This document shows positions 6,997 to 63,330 of a stretch of DNA of 64,000 nt, piece by piece (the stretch's first letter is position 1; every line of letters begins with the position of its first letter). This DNA comes from Leptothermofonsia sichuanensis E412 (GTDB lineage: Bacteria > Cyanobacteriota > Cyanobacteriia > Leptolyngbyales > Leptolyngbyaceae): positions 4,960,001-5,024,000 of the forward strand of contig NZ_CP072600.1 in the NCBI RefSeq assembly GCF_019891175.1. The letters are read 5' to 3'. Under the pieces are notes generated by a model. That model saw nothing but the letters and a program-made list of their open reading frames with translations. It did no database searches and was not told where the DNA came from. The position numbers and the translations under genes are program-made.

Positions 6997-7677
6997 ATGA
7001 CCCTAACGGCTCAGGAATTGGCAGACTTAATGCCCGATGCCCGTCAACTGGAGAGCGATGAACCAGAGATGGAAAGTTCGTTACACTATGCCCAGTTGGC
7101 GCTCCTGGTGGCCTGTCTGGAATGGCTGTGGCGCGATCGCACTGACTTTTTTATCGGGGCGAATCTCTCTATTTACTTCAGCCGCGACCAGCTTAAAAAG
7201 CGCGACTTTCGCGGCCCAGATTTCTTTCTCGTCACGCACACAGAGCGCAAACCCCGAAAATCTTGGGTGGTGTGGGAAGAAGGCGGGCAGTATCCTGACT
7301 TAATTATTGAGCTGTTGTCTCCCGCGACGGCCCAAATCGATCGCAGTCTGAAAAAAGCCCTTTACCAGGATCGCTTCAGAACTCCAGAGTATTTCTGGTT
7401 TTCGCCAGACACCCTGGAGTTTGAGGGCTATCGGCTAGTGGGGCAACACTATGAGGCCATCGCCCCCAACGAGATAGGCTGGCGCTGGAGTGAGGTGCTG
7501 GGGCTGTTTTTGGGGGTGCAGGATGGGCAGTTGCGCTATTTTACGGAATCAGGAGAGTTGGTGCCAACCCCGCAAGAAGCTGCGGCTCAGGCAATGGCAG
7601 AAGCAGCTCAGGCAGAGGCGCGATCACAGCGATTAGCAGAGCAGTTGAGGGCGCTGGGGGTAGAGCCAGATGCTTAG
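6997..7677 (+). CDS. Uma2 family (DUF820) nuclease-fold protein with Ala/Glu-rich tail
   Basis: Start taken at the ATG preceded by GGAGAGAG; an ATG at 6955 with AGGAG upstream is an alternative. Family motifs: FRGPDFFLVTHTERKPRKSW, PDLIIELLSPATAQIDRSLK and TPEYFWFSPDTLEFEGYRL. The C-terminus is a charged, Ala-rich segment (QAMAEAAQAEARSQRLAEQL) likely to form a helix or coiled coil, as in many cyanobacterial Uma2 proteins. The stretch 6904-6942 reads MVQAQPQLLSFR and then stops, resembling the start of yet another Uma2 gene, so an additional copy may have been lost here. Confidence 0.85.
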   Translation: MTLTAQELADLMPDARQLESDEPEMESSLHYAQLALLVACLEWLWRDRTDFFIGANLSIYFSRDQLKKRDFRGPDFFLVTHTERKPRKSWVVWEEGGQYPDLIIELLSPATAQIDRSLKKALYQDRFRTPEYFWFSPDTLEFEGYRLVGQHYEAIAPNEIGWRWSEVLGLFLGVQDGQLRYFTESGELVPTPQEAAAQAMAEAAQAEARSQRLAEQLRALGVEPDA

Positions 7678-13530: not shown

Positions 13531-14622
13531 TTAGGACTCACTATTTTTTTCTCCCATCGAACAGCTATCTATCTTGGCAAATAATGTAATCAAGCGGTCT
13601 CTCCGATTTTCAAACCAACCGTCTTCTCCTGCCCACAGGCTACTGGGCAAATGTCCGTCAGGAATTGTCTCAGAATTGTAAGTAAAGTCTGCATTGCTAC
13701 GCCAAGACCAATTCCCATTAGCATCTTTTATCCGCCAGCCATTCTTAGTTCCGAAGATGTCTCTGTCCTTAAACGACTCCTGGAAAATCCTCTTTTGCAC
13801 GCTGAAACCAAATCTTCCTTCGCTATTTTCCCGCCAAAGCGAATCAATTGTCTCTAAGTCAGTGCAAGGAAACACTGTCAAGGTTTCTTGGTTGACTTCT
13901 GTAGAGTTAGCGACTGTTTGAATTACTTCTTTTATGACGCGGGCTGTTTCTTGATCTGCTTCGCGCCATTGTTTCTTCTTTAAGTATCTTTTCAAAGTGG
14001 CATAATCCACACCAACAGAAGATTCCATTAGGGCTTGGAATCGTTCATCCTTCCGCAACCGATCAAAGTCAGAATTAGTTTTTGCAAGCTGTTGAGATGC
14101 TTCTAGATTGAGCCTGACAGCCTCTTTCAAATTTTCGAGTGCTTGCTGAGCATAGCCAAGCTGTGATTGACAGGAAGCCTTCACATACCAACCTAAGAAG
14201 TTTTCTGAATCTATATCAATGAGCTTGTCAGCAGTCTTTATGACTTTCTCAAACTCTTGAAGATTATAAAGACATACCCCAATGCCCCACCAAGCAGAGT
14301 AATTATCCGGATCAAGTTTTAGGCTTTCTTCATAAGTTGCGATCGCCTCTTCATTTCTACCTAATCCCTGTAGAGAGTCACCAAGATTGTTCAGCGCAAT
14401 CACTAGTGTCCGATCCAGTTGGATCGCTTTAAGCAGGGTTGGTATTGCTTCCTCAAATTTTTCCAACTGATTCAAGGCGTAGCCTTTATTATTCCAGGCA
14501 AGCACTAGTCCAGGATTAGCCTGAATTGCTTGGTCATAAAATTCAATTGCTTTCTGACAGTCTGCCTCTAAATACTCATTTCCTTGGTTGTAAAAATCAA
14601 CTGCTTGATCCAGTGATTGATA
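13531..14622 (-). pseudogene. TPR-GUN4 protein gene, 5' end removed at IS-A copy 3
   Basis: The protein part ends at 13531 and the frame stays open up to the IS border at 14622 (upstream codons read QSLDQAVDFYNQGNEYLEAD). Residues 1-140 or so are TPR units (AWNNKGYALNQLEKFEEAIP, ALNNLGDSLQGLGRNEEAIA). The C-terminal 150 residues are a GUN4 domain: YATLKRYLKKKQWREADQET, LWRENSEGRFGFSVQKRIFQ, DGHLPSSLWAG. GUN4 binds porphyrins and assists Mg-chelatase, but TPR-fused GUN4 proteins in cyanobacteria may have signalling roles. The start codon and N-terminus are missing, and the sequence beyond the IS does not continue the gene. Confidence 0.85.
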
Positions 14623-14704
14623 TACTTTGCCGGGGTATAGATTTTACCCTCTAGATAAAGTAGAAATGAGGTAGACCGTTGAGTGTTGAGCACGGTGCCT
14701 CCCA

Positions 14705-15172
14705 ATGATCCAACTGAGCTTTAGTGCCGAAGAGATTGAGCAACTACATTACGAACGCTTTCACCATCCACATCCGCGTGTGCAACAAAAAATGGAAGCG
14801 TTGTATCTCAAAAGTCAAGGATACTCGCATCAGGAAATTACCCGGTTGCTTCGGGTGACAAAACCAACGTTGTTGAGCTATCTGCGAGATTATGAAACTG
14901 GGGGGATCGGCAATCTCAAAGAATTGACCTTTTATCGACCCCAGAGTGAACTGAAACAACATCAACAGACTTTGGAAGCATACTTCCGGGCAAATCCTCC
15001 AAAGACCCTAGCGCAGGCTTGCGCCAAGATCGAAGAACTGACTGGTATTGTCCGTAGTCGGGAGCAAGTGAGGGTGTTTCTCAAATCGATGGGGATGCGT
15101 TGTCGGCGAGTGGGGATGTTGCCCGCCAAAGCTGATGTAGAAGCGCAGGAGGAGTTCGTCAAAAAAAACTAG
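14705..15172 (+). CDS. IS-A transposase ORF-A, copy 3
   Basis: 155 residues, MIQLSFSAEEIEQLHYERF..., helix-turn-helix half ending FVKKN directly after the A8 run. Starts 82 bp inside the element. Confidence 0.92.
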   Translation: MIQLSFSAEEIEQLHYERFHHPHPRVQQKMEALYLKSQGYSHQEITRLLRVTKPTLLSYLRDYETGGIGNLKELTFYRPQSELKQHQQTLEAYFRANPPKTLAQACAKIEELTGIVRSREQVRVFLKSMGMRCRRVGMLPAKADVEAQEEFVKKN

Positions 15173-15261
15173 ACCCACGACTGCAAGAGGCAAAAGCAGG
15201 TCAGAGAGCCGTCTTCTTTGTCGATGCTGCCCATTTTGTTCTGGGGGCCTACTTAGGGTTT

Positions 15262-15744
15262 TTGTGGTGCTTTGAACGCTTGTTTATCAAGTCGGGGGCA
15301 GGAAGGCAACGGTTCAATGTCTTAGGGGCCCTCAACGCCGTGACTCATGCGTTAATCACCGTCACCAATGAGACTTATATCAACGCTCAAAGTGTCTGTG
15401 AATTACTGCACAAACTGGCAGCTCTGGGATTAGACATTCCGATTACGCTTGTGTTGGATAACGCTCGGTATCAGAAGTGTGCGGTTGTGATGGAGTTGGC
15501 TCAATCATTGAACATTGAGTTGTTGTATCTAACGGTCTATTCTCCCAATCTCAACTTGATTGAGCGCTTGTGGAAGTTTGTCAAGAAGCAATGCTTATAT
15601 TCGATTTATTATGCTGACTTCTCTGCATTTAAGGAGGCGATTACTGCTTGTCTCAACCAGTGTCATACGACGTATAAACCTGAGTTAGATTCACTGTTAA
15701 CCTTGCGTTTTCAGTCCTTTAAACAAGTAAAAACTATACCCTGA
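15262..15744 (+). CDS. IS-A transposase ORF-B, copy 3
   Basis: DDE half with LDNAR and NLIERLWKF, in the -1 frame relative to ORF-A. The frame is open from the A8 run near 15166, so a slippage fusion KKKLDPRLQEA is expected. Confidence 0.9.
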   Translation: MWCFERLFIKSGAGRQRFNVLGALNAVTHALITVTNETYINAQSVCELLHKLAALGLDIPITLVLDNARYQKCAVVMELAQSLNIELLYLTVYSPNLNLIERLWKFVKKQCLYSIYYADFSAFKEAITACLNQCHTTYKPELDSLLTLRFQSFKQVKTIP

Positions 15745-15768
15745 CAAGGTATATTCAGTTACAACTTG

Positions 15769-17046
15769 TCATTTACAAAAAGCCAGCATTTCGTGAGATG
15801 GTGTTTCATTCCACCAGCGATCGCCCCAGCTTGCAGACCACTGCACCTGGTCGGCGCTAAAGCGGAGCGGGTCATCATCGGGTAGAGGGGAGTGAAATGG
15901 CTCTTCCACCAGGGCAAATTCACCATTGTCGAAAGGCAGTCCACTTGCCTGCTTTCTAAGGACAACCCGCTCCCGGATGCCACGACTCGCCTGAGTTAGT
16001 GCCCGGTAGTGACAATAGGGGTTATTGCCCCGCCGATCAAAGAAGACGTGGGCAGTCCAGGTGCACCCACCACGACACAGTTCAGCGAACTCACAGGTTT
16101 TGCAGAAACCCCACAGATGGCTGGTGCCCTGGGCAGTGCCAGCGGCAAGATTGAACTTTAGTTCGTCAGTTTGCGCCACAATTTCCCTCAGGGAGCGATC
16201 GCGAATATTGCCCCCGGTATACGCTGTAGTTGGCAGGGAAGGACAACCTTTGATTGCCCCATCGGCTTCGATGCCCAGAGTTGAAAGTCCGGCAGCACAG
16301 CCCTGCCAGAAGTCCCATTCGTTTCCACCACCGCGTAACAGTCGCTCATAGGGACCGTAGTAGCCAATGTTGTTCCCTGGCTGTAATCGGACCATACCTT
16401 CTGCGGCAGCACGACGGGCAACCCGTGCCAGCATCGGATACACATCCAGCAATTCGTAAGGCTGGAGCAACCGTTCGGCATGGTCTGCCGCATTCCCCAT
16501 TGGCACCGTCAACTGGATCTGCCATGCCCTTGCCCCGGCATCCCGGATATGTTCATAAATGCAGGGAAACTCGGGTGCCGATAACCGATTGATCTGGGTA
16601 TTACAGCCAAAGGCAATACCCACCTGTTGCAGGTGCGCCATCGTCTTAAAGGCGTGTTGCCAGGAACCTTTTTTTCCGCGCAGGCGATCGTGGGTTGCTT
16701 CCAGCCCATCCACAGATACCGATACCGTTGCAATCCCCGCTGCCTTCATCCGCTGTGCCGTTTCCAGAGAAACACCAAACCCTCCCGTCGTCATACTGCA
16801 CAACATCCCTGCCCGATTAATTGCTGCGGCAATTTCCAGCCAATCTGGACGCATAAATGCCTCACCCCCAATCAGGGTTACTTCCTTAATCCCCACATCT
16901 GCCATCTGCTGTACCAGATCCAGCGCTTCCTCGGTTGAAAGTTCCTTTGTGCGAGATTGTCCGGCTCTGGAACCACAATGGCTACAGGCAAGATTACATT
17001 TCAGGGTAATTTCCCAGACGGCGTAACTGGTCCTGCGATAATTCAT
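15769..17046 (-). CDS. Radical SAM/SPASM maturase for a Nif11-type RiPP (PlpX-like)
   Basis: 425 residues. The N-terminus carries the 4Fe-4S motif CNLACSHCG (C-x3-C-x2-C), then TLIGGEAFMRPDW (GGE motif) and TTGGFGV. The C-terminal SPASM region holds further cysteines: GCPSLP, GFCKTCEFAELCRGGCTW and NPYCHY. This layout matches maturases paired with Nif11-type leader peptides, such as Pleurocapsa PlpX, which removes tyramine from an X-Y-G motif and leaves an alpha-keto-beta-amino acid. The precursor gene with two MYG motifs lies on the same strand upstream, across a 14-bp tandem repeat. No PlpY-like partner was found. The stop codon is about 17 bp from IS-A copy 3, and the gene is intact. Assignment to the splicease subgroup rests on the precursor. 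Confidence 0.88.
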   Translation of the reverse strand: MNYRRTSYAVWEITLKCNLACSHCGSRAGQSRTKELSTEEALDLVQQMADVGIKEVTLIGGEAFMRPDWLEIAAAINRAGMLCSMTTGGFGVSLETAQRMKAAGIATVSVSVDGLEATHDRLRGKKGSWQHAFKTMAHLQQVGIAFGCNTQINRLSAPEFPCIYEHIRDAGARAWQIQLTVPMGNAADHAERLLQPYELLDVYPMLARVARRAAAEGMVRLQPGNNIGYYGPYERLLRGGGNEWDFWQGCAAGLSTLGIEADGAIKGCPSLPTTAYTGGNIRDRSLREIVAQTDELKFNLAAGTAQGTSHLWGFCKTCEFAELCRGGCTWTAHVFFDRRGNNPYCHYRALTQASRGIRERVVLRKQASGLPFDNGEFALVEEPFHSPLPDDDPLRFSADQVQWSASWGDRWWNETPSHEMLAFCK

Positions 17047-17094
17047 AATAATTTGTGTTGTGGATTTGGTTATGGATGGGAAACAGGGAGAAAA

Positions 17095-17304
17095 GTGTGG
17101 AAAGTTGAGTGTGGAAAGTTGAGTGTGGAAAGTTGAGTGTGGAAAGTTGAGTGTGGAAAGTTGAGTGTGGAAAGTTGAGTGTGGAAAGTTGAGTGTGGAA
17201 AGTTGAGTGTGGAAAGTTGAGTGTGGAAAGTTGAGTGTGGAAAGTTGAGTGTGGAAAGTTGAGTGTGGAAAGTTGAGTGTGGAAAGTTGAGTGTGGAAAG
17301 TTGA
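17095..17304. repeat. Tandem array of a 14-bp unit, 15 copies
   Basis: The unit GTGTGGAAAGTTGA is repeated 15 times without visible change over 210 bp, between the RiPP maturase and its precursor gene. Perfect units suggest recent expansion by slippage. It lies about 50 bp upstream of the maturase start and so could alter that gene's expression or the distance from the precursor transcript. Confidence 0.96.
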
Positions 17305-17497
17305 GAAATTTAAGCTATTGACTTTTAAGCTACTGACTATTGATGGGGCAATGAAGCACGAAAACAGTAGGGGATAGGGCAGGTATAGCAGAGGACAGGA
17401 GAAGGACAGGGAAAAAGGAGGAACGGGATCAGGGAGTGAGCATTCTGATTTGTCCTGATCTGTATAGCTACTGACGCCATGTGCAACTTGGAAGCCA

Positions 17498-17563
17498 AGA
17501 TCCCCGGTGTCTCGTAGACTTCAATCGAATTGGCTGGCTAACTTCCTCAGACACCGGGGATCT
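17498..17563. repeat. 15-bp inverted repeat with 36-bp loop
   Basis: Left arm AGATCCCCGGTGTCT (17498-17512) and right arm AGACACCGGGGATCT (17549-17563) are perfect complements. It lies downstream of the precursor gene on the minus strand, where it could protect or terminate the short precursor mRNA. It may also be a dispersed palindromic repeat. No T run follows. Apart from the 14-bp array and this repeat, I see nothing in 17047-17674. Confidence 0.7.
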
Positions 17564-17674
17564 GGAGATTGTCGCACTTCGCATTACTGCTATACCTGAT
17601 GCCAGGCGTGAGGTATGAGATGTCAGGAAGGAAAGACCGCTTTAACTTGTCCCCCTGTCCCTTCTATAATTTGT

Positions 17675-18040
17675 CTACAGATCGCTAGAAACGATGACAC
17701 CGTACATGGGCTGAACTGGAGGCATAATGGGCTTAATTGGGCGGATGGGCCACCAGATGACGCCGTACATGGGTTGAACAATAGGTTGAGTGCCAATATA
17801 TCCACCAAATACGACCGACAGTTCAGCTTCAGTCAGGTCGTCAAACTGTCCCTGTTCCTTCTCTTCCAGTACTTGAATTGCAGCAGACTCAAATTCTTCT
17901 TTAGAAAAGCTGTAACCAGCATTGGCTAAAAACTGTGTGCGCTCTTCAGCCGCAGTATTTTCCAGTTGAGATCTGAAACTCTGGTCTTTGGCTAACTTTA
18001 CCAAAAACTCTTTTACCTTTTCTACGATTCCAGCAGACAT
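17675..18040 (-). CDS. Nif11-type RiPP precursor with two MYG motifs (candidate spliceotide precursor)
   Basis: 121 residues from ATG, with GGAGG 5 bp upstream. Residues 1 to about 80 are a Nif11-like leader (MSAGIVEKVKEFLVKLAKDQ..., FLANAGYSFSKEEFE) ending LTEAELSVVFGG, the usual double-Gly cleavage site. The core has about 41 residues: YIGTQPIV, then QPMYGVI, then WWPIRPIKPIMPPV, then QPMYGVI again and VSSDL. The M-Y-G tripeptide occurs twice, in identical seven-residue blocks. In the Pleurocapsa plp system a radical SAM enzyme excises the Tyr-derived part at such X-Y-G sites. The matching enzyme is encoded downstream (15769-17046). An IS3 element inserted 184 bp upstream may have displaced the promoter. 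Confidence 0.9.
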   Translation of the reverse strand: MSAGIVEKVKEFLVKLAKDQSFRSQLENTAAEERTQFLANAGYSFSKEEFESAAIQVLEEKEQGQFDDLTEAELSVVFGGYIGTQPIVQPMYGVIWWPIRPIKPIMPPVQPMYGVIVSSDL

Positions 18041-18303
18041 TTTTGCCTCCAACTGTCAGAAAACTGAAAATAGAAAACTGAAAAATTTTCCAAAACCGCT
18101 CAGGTTTGGAAAACTTGTCTACAAATATCTGAGAAATGATGACTATAGTTCAAGCCAATAAAGGCTTTTATTGAGACATATTCTGGTGACTTATGTCTTA
18201 TTTTTTCCTGATACCAGTTTATGATGTACCCCGAAAACTAGACAGAGGAATAAGATAGAGTCGCTGCCCGCAGAACCAGTCGAACTACGGAGACAATCAA
18301 GGT

Positions 18304-18594
18304 ATGCAGCGCAAACAACACAGTGCAGAATTCAAAGCCAAGGTCGCTATCGAAGCGATCAAAGGACTGAAAACGGTGAACGAACTGGCAACCGAACACG
18401 GGGTACATCCGACGCAGATCCACCAGTGGAAGAAACAAGTCCTTGACGAACTGCCCGGCATCTTCTCATCCCGGCGTGCCCAAAGCCAGAAGGAACAGGA
18501 GGACTTAACGGCAAGCCTGTATCAGCAGATTGGGCAACTCAAAGTCGAGTTGGACTGGTTGAAAAAAAAATCTGGCATTGTCGCTCGATCATAA
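18304..18594 (+). CDS. IS3 transposase OrfA
   Basis: 96 residues with an N-terminal helix-turn-helix (HSAEFKAKVAIEAIKGLKTV, HGVHPTQIHQWKK) and a C-terminal leucine-zipper-like stretch. The frame ends shortly after a G-A9 run at 18561-18570, the probable -1 slippage site joining it to OrfB. Confidence 0.92.
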   Translation: MQRKQHSAEFKAKVAIEAIKGLKTVNELATEHGVHPTQIHQWKKQVLDELPGIFSSRRAQSQKEQEDLTASLYQQIGQLKVELDWLKKKSGIVARS

Positions 18595-19450
18595 ACGCCA
18601 ACTGGTGGAGCCAAATCATTCCGACATTAGTGTGGCACGTCAATGCGAATTGCTCGATTTAGCCCGCTCCAGTTGGTACTACAAGCCCGTTGCCGTAGAC
18701 GCTTACGAGTTGCATCTGATGAATCTGATTGATGCTCAGTACACCAAAACGCCGTTTTATGGCATTCGCCGCATGACAGCGTGGCTGAGAACGCAGGGCG
18801 AAGTAGTCAATCATAAGCGGGTAGCACGAATGATGCGGCAAATGGGCATCGAAGCGATTTATCCTCGTCCCCGCACGACGATTCCTGCGGATAATGCACG
18901 ACGTTATCCCTATCTGCTCAAAGGATTGACGATTGATGCGCCGAATTTAGTTTGGAGTACTGACATTACCTATATTCGGCTTGCCAGGGGCTTTGTGTAT
19001 CTCGTTGCGATCATTGATTGGTACAGTCGCTATGTTCTCTCGTGGCAGTTGTCTAACACAATGGATATCCACTTCTGCCTGGTGGCACTGGAACAAGCCT
19101 TACAACTCGGACAGCCTGTGATCTTCAACTCCGACCAGGGCAGCCAGTTCACAAGCCATCCGTTCACGAGCTACCTGGAAAGCAGGGATATTCGGATCTC
19201 TCACGATGGCAAAGGACGAGCGTTCGACAACATCTTTATCGAACGGCTTTGGCGCAGTGTCAAATATGAGGAGGTGTATCTCAAAGATTATTCAACGGTC
19301 GCGGTTGCGATGGAGGGATTGGGGAACTACTTCGAGTTTTACAATCATCAGCGGTTACATCAGGCGTTGAATTATCAAGTGCCATCCGCAGTGCATTTCA
19401 GTACAGGAGATGATAACTATGTATTAGAGCAAACACAAAAGAACAAATGA
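18578..19450 (+). CDS. IS3 transposase OrfB (DDE integrase)
   Basis: 290 residues, rve integrase core: WSTDITYIRL (first Asp), FNSDQGSQFTS (second Asp) and FDNIFIERLWRSVKYEEVYL (Glu), followed by NHQRLHQALNYQVP. It is in the -1 frame relative to OrfA and intact, so the element looks functional. Confidence 0.93.
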   Translation: MSLDHKRQLVEPNHSDISVARQCELLDLARSSWYYKPVAVDAYELHLMNLIDAQYTKTPFYGIRRMTAWLRTQGEVVNHKRVARMMRQMGIEAIYPRPRTTIPADNARRYPYLLKGLTIDAPNLVWSTDITYIRLARGFVYLVAIIDWYSRYVLSWQLSNTMDIHFCLVALEQALQLGQPVIFNSDQGSQFTSHPFTSYLESRDIRISHDGKGRAFDNIFIERLWRSVKYEEVYLKDYSTVAVAMEGLGNYFEFYNHQRLHQALNYQVPSAVHFSTGDDNYVLEQTQKNK

Positions 19451-19687
19451 ACCAGGAGGAGATTCTATCTTAAAGTTTTATGTTTGCTGTCTAGACAATG
19501 GGGTACACTTTAGTTCAATAAAGAGGTATAATTTATACTTTTCAAACATATTCAAACCAAACTTGAGCAGTTCAAGTTCGGTATACGGCGCTCAGGGATC
19601 TGTACGGAAATAAAATACTGGGGCAAAGAGCTGGTTCAAATACTATTTCACAAATCTATTTCACAAATCCAGGGCAGACGAGATCTC

Positions 19688-61867: not shown

Positions 61868-63151
61868 TTATTTCATCACTTCACGAACAGCCTCAGCAAT
61901 ATCGGTAGCATAGTTCCCGTTGTAGCGGGAGTTAATCACAACCCCCACGGTGATTCCATTGTTGAAGGTGAAGACCCAGGTATTGATCTCGCCGTTGTTC
62001 CATCTGGCAGGGTGCCAGCCGCCGTGCCCCCAACCTTCCAGACCTTCCCCAAAATTACGCCAGAACAGACCCAGATTTTCGCTGCGCATCTGATCGACTG
62101 TACTTTGCGGCAAGATTTTCTCAGTAAAACTTAGCGTATGCATAAACCGCGCCAGCTCATCCGCAGAGAGATTCCAGCCCTGCGAGCCACAACGCAATGT
62201 CATGTCTCCCCAGTCAATACCGGGTTTCAGGTTGTCCCAGTCGTAATTGCCAGCAAAATACGCACCAGTATCGTCGCCATTATCCTTGACTGACTCATAG
62301 CTAAGGGCTGGACTGGAGGCTGGGGCTTTACAGGTTGCATAAGGAATACCAGCGGAATTCAGTACCATCCGATTGACAATGACTTCATATTGCTTAGCAT
62401 AGTCCTCTTCGGTTTTCGGTTGGCTACCATAGATGCGGGGCAGAATGATGCGCATCAATGCATAGTTTTCATTGGCGTATTTATATACCTTGTTGGCCGG
62501 AGTAATCCCATCGGCAACGCATTTCTTCAAACCGTCAAAGCTGATATTGCAGCCGTTTCCGCTGCGAATGCCACTGGTGTGGCTTAACAGTTCACGGATA
62601 GTAATGGCCTTAAAGTTGGAGCCTAAAGTCCAGTCAGCGGGTAAATACTTTGAAGCTGATTCATCCAGACTAATCCCTTTGCTGGCCATTACTCGCAACA
62701 TTGCTGCGGCTGTAATCGGTTTGCTGACACTAGCGGTTGTGATGCGATCTGTCACTGCCATTGCCCGCTGATTACTGTCAGGGGGAGACTTGCGGGCAAA
62801 ACCACCGGTAGCCGTGGTCTTGACACCTGAGGCGGTCATAATGGTGACCGCATAGCCCACAGATTTGCCATCCATCCGTTTTTTAATCCCTTGGGCGATC
62901 GCTGTAGCGGCCAGAGACTCTTGGATTTTGGGGGTGATTCTCTGCCACCCCTTCGCACCACCCGGGCGTTTTTGACCAGATAGGGGCACTCCAGGCATCA
63001 TCACCGCTGGGTAACGGCTCAAGTCGGCATCGACAAGAGTCCCGGCAGGAACCCGCAGGACAGGAGCGTCAGGATTTGCCCCTGCTACCGAGGTGGTGCC
63101 CAGAGCGACTAGAATACAGGGCAGAGAGAGCCATTTCCGCAAGATTTCCAT
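61868..63151 (-). CDS. Secreted class-C beta-lactamase-fold serine hydrolase
   Basis: 427 residues with a signal peptide (MEILRKWLSLPCILVALGTT...). Penicillin-binding/class-C motifs: TTASVSKPITAAAML (S-x-x-K), KYANENYALM (Y-x-N) and GWGHGGWHPARW (H-x-G near the C-terminus). Preceded by GGFARKSPPDSNQRAMAVTD. Four Cys may form disulfides, for example NGCNISFDGLKKC. Role is a periplasmic or secreted esterase/peptidase; the true substrate is unknown and antibiotic resistance should not be assumed. Confidence 0.9.
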   Translation of the reverse strand: MEILRKWLSLPCILVALGTTSVAGANPDAPVLRVPAGTLVDADLSRYPAVMMPGVPLSGQKRPGGAKGWQRITPKIQESLAATAIAQGIKKRMDGKSVGYAVTIMTASGVKTTATGGFARKSPPDSNQRAMAVTDRITTASVSKPITAAAMLRVMASKGISLDESASKYLPADWTLGSNFKAITIRELLSHTSGIRSGNGCNISFDGLKKCVADGITPANKVYKYANENYALMRIILPRIYGSQPKTEEDYAKQYEVIVNRMVLNSAGIPYATCKAPASSPALSYESVKDNGDDTGAYFAGNYDWDNLKPGIDWGDMTLRCGSQGWNLSADELARFMHTLSFTEKILPQSTVDQMRSENLGLFWRNFGEGLEGWGHGGWHPARWNNGEINTWVFTFNNGITVGVVINSRYNGNYATDIAEAVREVMK

Positions 63152-63330
63152 ATTTCTAGCACCTCTAATGTAACTGATATAACTGTTTTAACTACGTGAT
63201 TGTAGAGGCAGCCCAAGTATTTTTTGGTGATATTTATCACTGCACACAAGCCATTGCCGATCAGGATAGAAGGAGAAGAAATTTAAATTTTTTGGTGTGG
63301 GAAAGGTACCGGGGAAATTGCTGCTTTAAA

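What the first reader, a model, noticed from the sequence alone, without database searches (positions are those of the whole stretch)
15769..18040. Candidate spliceotide (MYG-type) RiPP pathway
Seen: a Nif11-type leader ending VVFGG, a core with QPMYGVI twice, and a radical SAM/SPASM gene on the same strand. Known: in the Pleurocapsa plp system (PlpA, PlpX, PlpY) the enzyme removes tyramine at an X-Y-G site and leaves an alpha-keto-beta-amino acid. Inference: two Met-derived alpha-keto-beta residues in one short, Pro-rich, aromatic core (WWPIRPIKPIMPPV between them). No PlpY-like gene and no transporter or protease gene are visible, so the cluster is minimal or split.
Basis: partly seen in the sequence, partly recalled or inferred. 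Interest (0 to 1): 0.92.

Follow-up and report, generated by a model that had tools for sequence, protein, structure and literature searches.

The report
Peptide-splicing gene pair missing its partner
A cyanobacterium carries the genes for a small peptide and an enzyme expected to cut pieces out of its backbone, a known but unusual chemistry; the usual third gene is gone, apparently lost to a jumping DNA element, so the pathway may be recently broken.

Summary
Window 17675-18040(-) encodes a Nif11-leader precursor with two QPMYGVI repeats; 15769-17046(-) encodes a TIGR04103 radical SAM/SPASM maturase (817.7 bits, cut-off 725). Such maturases are over the cut-off in 21 of 386 cyanobacterial genomes. 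In 76 of 79 named loci they sit beside Nif11 ORFs with YG cores; the residue before YG is Leu or Met in 156 of 213 sites. A locus that is very probably the Pleurocapsa plp prototype has the same parts. So this is a member of the known spliceotide (PlpA/PlpX) kind. What is unusual is the missing partner: a small plpY-like gene follows the maturase in 79 of 79 named loci, but is absent here and from the whole genome, while the same search finds it in 4 of 4 held-out genomes. An IS630-like element with 41 near-full-length copies lies 15 bp after the maturase stop, with a seemingly truncated TPR-GUN4 gene on its other side. Best reading: a recent IS-associated deletion removed plpY, leaving an otherwise intact, probably crippled splicease system. 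A splicease working without PlpY is not excluded. No chemistry was tested.

The parts
17675..18040 (-). Precursor peptide gene (PlpA-like, 121 aa): Nif11-type leader and 41-aa core
   Evidence: homologues next to related maturases
17801..18040 (-). Nif11-type leader, residues 1-80, ends VVFGG
   Evidence: TIGR03798 36 bits (cut-off 32.3); position computed
17756..17776 (-). First splice motif QPMYGVI
   Evidence: motif statistics
17693..17713 (-). Second splice motif QPMYGVI
   Evidence: motif statistics
15769..17046 (-). Radical SAM/SPASM maturase (PlpX-like, TIGR04103), 425 aa; CxxxCxxC and 7-Cys SPASM set present
14621..15753 (+). IS630-like insertion sequence (name from recalled features) with TA at both ends; transposase in two frames (HTH, then DDE_3); occupies the place where relatives have plpY
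   Evidence: 43 matches in own genome; ends; HTH and DDE_3
13531..14620 (-). TPR-GUN4 gene on the far side of the IS, apparently lacking its 5' end
   Evidence: truncation is inferred, GTG 14505 could be a start
17047..17674 (.). 628-bp precursor-maturase spacer (154 bp in the same-genus relative), with a 14-bp tandem array at 17094-17305
18225..19507 (+). IS3-like element 184 bp upstream of the precursor start; ends set by eye from TGTACCCC/GGGGTACA
   Evidence: transposase domains

Best explanation
This is a spliceotide-type RiPP locus: precursor (PlpA-like) plus splicease (PlpX-like), shared with the same-genus relative. [quoted passage not shown] The 41-residue core would then be cut off after GG. 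In this strain plpY was recently lost, most likely by an IS-associated deletion that also trimmed a TPR-GUN4 gene. The remaining pair looks intact but probably makes little or no spliced product. Shown here: gene identity, conserved catalytic Cys, motif conservation, absence of plpY in the assembly, IS at the junction. Inferred: the chemistry in this strain, its need for PlpY, the deletion route and its recency.
For: Maturase 817.7 bits to TIGR04103, cut-off 725. 168 of 169 columns invariant in 82 relatives and 12 of 12 conserved Cys columns are kept; 90% identity to the same-genus protein, 76% to the probable Pleurocapsa PlpX. Nif11-like ORFs with YG in 76 of 79 loci. plpY-like ORF in 79 of 79 named loci and in 23 of 29 loci; the six without are the window and five loci with distant maturases below the cut-off. 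No plpY in the own genome, while 4 of 4 held-out genomes, and the same-genus one, match at 1.1e-11 or better. IS end 15 bp after the maturase stop, TA at both ends, similar inverted ends; 43 matches in the genome, 41 near full length, all printed as 100% identical. Low dN/dS against the relative: 0.062/1.46 for the maturase, 0.104/1.17 for the precursor. PlpX is reported to work with PlpY (passages of PMC11002830, and PMC10373908).
Against: No chemistry was tested. I saw no passage saying that PlpY is strictly required. Low dN/dS mostly reflects time before a recent loss, and dS is near saturation. The window branch is longer than the relative's (0.095 against 0.053), and DNA similarity to the relative stops at 15805, 36 bp before the stop codon, so the last dozen residues may be altered, though this tail varies across the family. 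An assembly error at a ~40-copy repeat could have dropped plpY. The deletion route is not shown: the intact arrangement was not found, and the relative has its cluster in another genomic place.
Confidence: 0.75

Rival explanations
1. The pathway is active without PlpY: this maturase needs no partner, or another cellular protein takes its place.
For: Maturase and precursor are open and conserved (168 of 169 invariant columns kept; low dN/dS). The genome has six C39-peptidase matches that could process and export a product in trans.
Against: plpY is kept in 79 of 79 related loci, which argues that it matters. The maturase carries no fused PlpY-like stretch: no PlpY match in the window better than E 0.2. 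The IS copies are printed as 100% identical, so the loss looks recent and intact genes are expected anyway.
Confidence: 0.12
2. plpY is present in the organism and missing only from the assembly, because of a misjoin or collapse at the multi-copy IS.
For: The junction lies exactly at a repeat with 43 matches in the genome.
Against: The genome is one contig of 6.43 Mb, listed as 100% complete; a misjoin alone would leave plpY elsewhere, and none is found.
Confidence: 0.1
3. The maturase is another kind of radical SAM/SPASM RiPP enzyme (sactipeptide, PqqE-like, GDL-motif trio) and the MYG repeats are incidental.
For: Weaker matches to TIGR03913 (421.5 bits), StsB (96.2) and PqqE (85.8).
Against: All three are far below their cut-offs (591.75, 625, 381.35). 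The core has no Cys. YG cores go with this maturase across the family.
Confidence: 0.03

Closest known systems
Spliceotide system plp of Pleurocapsa sp. PCC 7319 (PlpA precursors, PlpX, PlpY); probable copy found here as L214
   Same: TIGR04103 maturase (824.4 bits there, 817.7 here), Nif11-leader precursors with M-Y-G or L-Y-G sites, maturase encoded after the precursor on the same strand.
   Different: Here no plpY, and no PoyD-type epimerase or NHLP precursor between the flanking IS elements; one precursor with two M-Y-G sites instead of two precursors with one site each.
plp-like locus of Leptolyngbyaceae cyanobacterium HOT.MB2.61 (L064 = L094), same genus
   Same: Precursor with QPMYGVI and QPLYGVI and nearly the same aromatic, Pro-rich spacer between them; maturase 90% identical.
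   Different: plpY present (7187-7411), gene spacer 154 bp instead of 628 bp, next to an MFS and a GAPDH-like gene (names from the translations).
TIGR03913 GDL-motif peptide-associated radical SAM/SPASM maturases
   Same: Nearest other curated family by score.
   Different: 421.5 bits against a cut-off of 591.75; not a member.

Membership tests
Spliceotide system (PlpX-type splicease) | Maturase over the TIGR04103 rSAM_nif11_3 cut-off | tested here: met
   817.7 bits, cut-off 725. The prototype PlpX is placed in IPR026482 by PMC11002830 (passage); that this entry equals TIGR04103 was not checked, but the probable plp maturase scores 824.4 bits.
Spliceotide system (PlpX-type splicease) | CxxxCxxC and SPASM cysteines intact | tested here: met
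   C17, C21, C24; C250-x12-G-x4-C268; C315-x2-C318-x5-C324-x3-C328...C345. The SPASM pattern is recalled.
Spliceotide system (PlpX-type splicease) | Precursor with Nif11 or NHLP leader ending in GG | tested here: met
   TIGR03798 36 bits (cut-off 32.3), VVFGG
Spliceotide system (PlpX-type splicease) | x-Y-G site in the core | tested here: met
   two M-Y-G sites
Spliceotide system (PlpX-type splicease) | PlpY partner encoded nearby | tested here: not met
   absent from window and genome; present in 79 of 79 named loci
Spliceotide system (PlpX-type splicease) | Loss of 135.07 Da per site, alpha-keto-beta-amino residue | not testable with these tools
   needs co-expression and mass spectrometry
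Spliceotide system (PlpX-type splicease) | Maturase groups with PlpX | tested here: met
   window, the 79 named rows and L214-L217 form one 84-row group against five distant TIGR04103 relatives, SH-aLRT 99, quick tree only, midpoint root. No rows of other radical SAM classes were in the tree; L214 as PCC 7319 is inferred.
Spliceotide system (PlpX-type splicease) | Leader protease/exporter | tested here: inconclusive
   six C39-peptidase matches in the genome, none beside the cluster
Sactipeptide or PqqE-like maturase | Score over the curated cut-off | tested here: not met
   StsB 96.2 of 625, SkfB 85.2 of 300, PqqE 85.8 of 381.35
GDL-motif trio (TIGR03913) | Score over the curated cut-off | tested here: not met
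   421.5 of 591.75

The most novel reading that the evidence does not exclude
The maturase of this strain splices its precursor without PlpY, or with a substitute, so that a natural splicease has become independent of a partner otherwise kept in each of the 79 related named loci examined.
Probability: 0.12. Interest if true: 0.6.

Novelty: new member of a known kind. Interest (0 to 1): 0.35.

Why it matters
Splicing tyramine out of a peptide backbone is unusual chemistry with use in protein labelling (PMC10533398, passages). This locus adds a precursor with two M-Y-G sites and a maturase 76% identical to the probable PlpX. If the assembly is right it is also a natural plpY deletion: expressing its maturase with and without a relative's PlpY asks directly how far PlpX needs its partner. 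The plpY-like gene has no NCBIfam match (two members tested) and no Pfam match (one tested), so ordinary annotation may overlook both its presence and its loss.

Tried and rejected
Tried: plpY elsewhere in the genome ('split cluster'): not found. plpY left beside the genes that follow it in the same-genus relative: those genes are at 414-417 kb in this genome, directly followed by an Acr3-like gene, with no room for plpY (Acr3 is my naming from the translation). Other Nif11 precursors as substrates: two at 840-841 kb have no YG; around the match at 2609259 my listing, limited to ORFs with GG or YG, showed no Nif11-like ORF. Identifying L214 as PCC 7319 by the published mass of tagged PlpA3-M5G failed: none of ten guessed tags fitted. 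AlphaFold2 of the maturase was poor (mean pLDDT 59.6), so no fold search was made. The careful tree did not finish; only the quick one was used. A solved PlpX structure: none among 12 chains matched; the best is SkfB. The repeat finder saw no inverted repeat in 14400-15900, though the imperfect IS ends show. Dropped before counts: the 79 named loci are the best 80 of 132 confirmed relatives; of 63 first-look IS candidates 40 were scored.

Full report
What is there. Window 17675-18040(-) encodes a 121-residue precursor: Nif11-type leader ending VVFGG and a 41-residue core with QPMYGVI twice. Window 15769-17046(-) encodes a 425-residue radical SAM/SPASM protein. NCBIfam names it nif11-class peptide radical SAM maturase 3, TIGR04103, 817.7 bits against a cut-off of 725; the next family, TIGR03913, scores 421.5 against 591.75, and the sactipeptide and PqqE models are far below their cut-offs.

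How common. Of 386 genomes drawn from the phylum, 21 (this one included) have a match over the TIGR04103 cut-off. Of 58 genomes in the search of relatives (own included), two are over the cut-off, this one and a same-genus one; a third (G010) has the maturase split over two frames. A scan of named genomes gave 132 confirmed relatives, of which 79 distinct loci were kept, cyanobacterial by title, some from the same genome. These 79 were not scored against TIGR04103.

Neighbours. Of the 79 named loci, 77 have a Nif11-like ORF within 6 kb of the maturase start and 76 have one with YG beyond residue 60; 121 of 125 such ORFs carry YG. Of 213 YG sites, the residue before YG is Leu in 97 and Met in 59, and the commonest context is QPLYGV (47). 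A small ORF with the pattern LPRSAW...AKKALD lies downstream of the maturase on the same strand (from 150 bases before to 1500 after its end, model E up to 0.01) in 79 of 79. The model was built from 23 loci, some from the same genomes as the 79. It also found the gene in four loci outside its training set: L214 (56 aa), L215, L216 and L217. Among the 29 loci it is missing only in the window and in five loci with distant maturases below the cut-off, at E up to 10, found no further ORF there.

The prototype. L214 (genome G445 of 7.4 Mb, same family as the genome of Hyella patelloides) holds a PoyD-type epimerase (617.8 bits, cut-off 325), an NHLP precursor (89 bits, cut-off 50.9), two Nif11 precursors, one with MYG at core residue 5 and one with LYG, a TIGR04103 maturase (824.4 bits) and the small ORF. 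This fits the plp cluster of Pleurocapsa sp. PCC 7319 as described in PMC11002830 (passage) and PMC10533398 (passages: MYG and LYG sites, and an M5G mutant of PlpA3). The small ORF is then PlpY. One review calls it a truncated RRE; PMC12710340 says it is too small for the RRE fold (passage). AlphaFold2 of the L094 copy (mean pLDDT 69.0, pTM 0.39) gives a long helix, residues 39-69, confident at 41-60, a short helix before it, and low confidence over residues 1-30.

The missing partner. The own genome has no match to PlpY at E up to 10 with a 23-row and a 39-row alignment. In the second search 4 of 4 genomes left out of the alignment, and the same-genus genome (whose copy is a row of it), matched at 1.4e-20 to 1.1e-11. 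In six frames of the window the best score is E 0.2 at 62938-63156; the one weak hit near the locus, 14406-14471(-), has E 8.3. Where plpY should be, 15 bp after the maturase stop, lies a 1133-bp element (14621-15753, both TA included) with similar inverted ends and a transposase in two frames, HTH then DDE_3, here called IS630-like from recalled features. The genome has 43 matches to it, 41 of them near full length, all printed as 100% identical. On its other side is a TPR-GUN4 gene whose frame runs into the IS. Joining the flanks shows that frame open back to the maturase stop codon; before GTG 14505 it holds no ATG, GTG or TTG. Both flanking units thus look truncated, which fits a deletion at the IS better than a simple insertion. 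This is inference: GTG 14505 could be the true start, and an assembly misjoin is a rival. An IS3-like element lies upstream (18225-19507).

State of the remaining genes. Against the same-genus relative, dN/dS is 0.062/1.46 for the maturase and 0.104/1.17 for the precursor. The window maturase keeps 168 of 169 columns invariant in 82 relatives, the same number as the same-genus protein, and 12 of 12 conserved Cys columns. It has three residues, where the same-genus protein has the commonest one, that are seen in no other relative (the reverse count is one), one inserted Met and three extra C-terminal residues. Its branch is longer, 0.095 against 0.053, and DNA similarity to the relative stops 36 bp before the stop codon. 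So there is no clear decay, as expected if the loss is recent, but the tail may be altered.

How it works. [quoted passage not shown] For this locus that step is inferred. The genome has six C39-peptidase matches that might cut and export the product in trans. Whether PlpX can work alone I could not read: the original papers are not held. Richter 2024 I know from a reference list, Morinaka 2018 and Scott 2022 from citations and recall.

Novelty. A new member of a known kind, with an apparent natural loss of plpY. I found no paper on such a loss; the searches were (only the last names insertion sequences), in an open-licence library.

Noticed in passing
window 17094-17305: 15.1 perfect copies of a 14-bp unit (AGTGTGGAAAGTTG) between precursor and maturase; exact copies occur nowhere else in the window.
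   Followed up: partly
window 17498-17512 and 17549-17563: A perfect 15-bp inverted repeat (AGATCCCCGGTGTCT / AGACACCGGGGATCT) in the same spacer; no other exact copy in the window. Terminator or small mobile repeat; not tested.
   Followed up: no
whole genome G000: 41 near-full-length copies of one IS630-like element, printed as 100% identical, a sign of a recent burst of transposition.
   Followed up: partly
L087-L091 (G058, G096, G086, G090): Distant maturases, 435-635 bits to TIGR04103 (below cut-off) and, in the four tested, below the TIGR03913 cut-off too, with no Nif11 precursor or plpY found on their contig stretches (3.2-12 kb); possibly a separate family.
   Followed up: partly
L065 (G010): Same-family relative whose maturase and precursor are each split over two frames while plpY is intact; decay or sequencing error.
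   Followed up: no
L141, L148 (Rhizonema): In these loci the listed Nif11 YG precursor lies downstream of the maturase instead of upstream.
   Followed up: no
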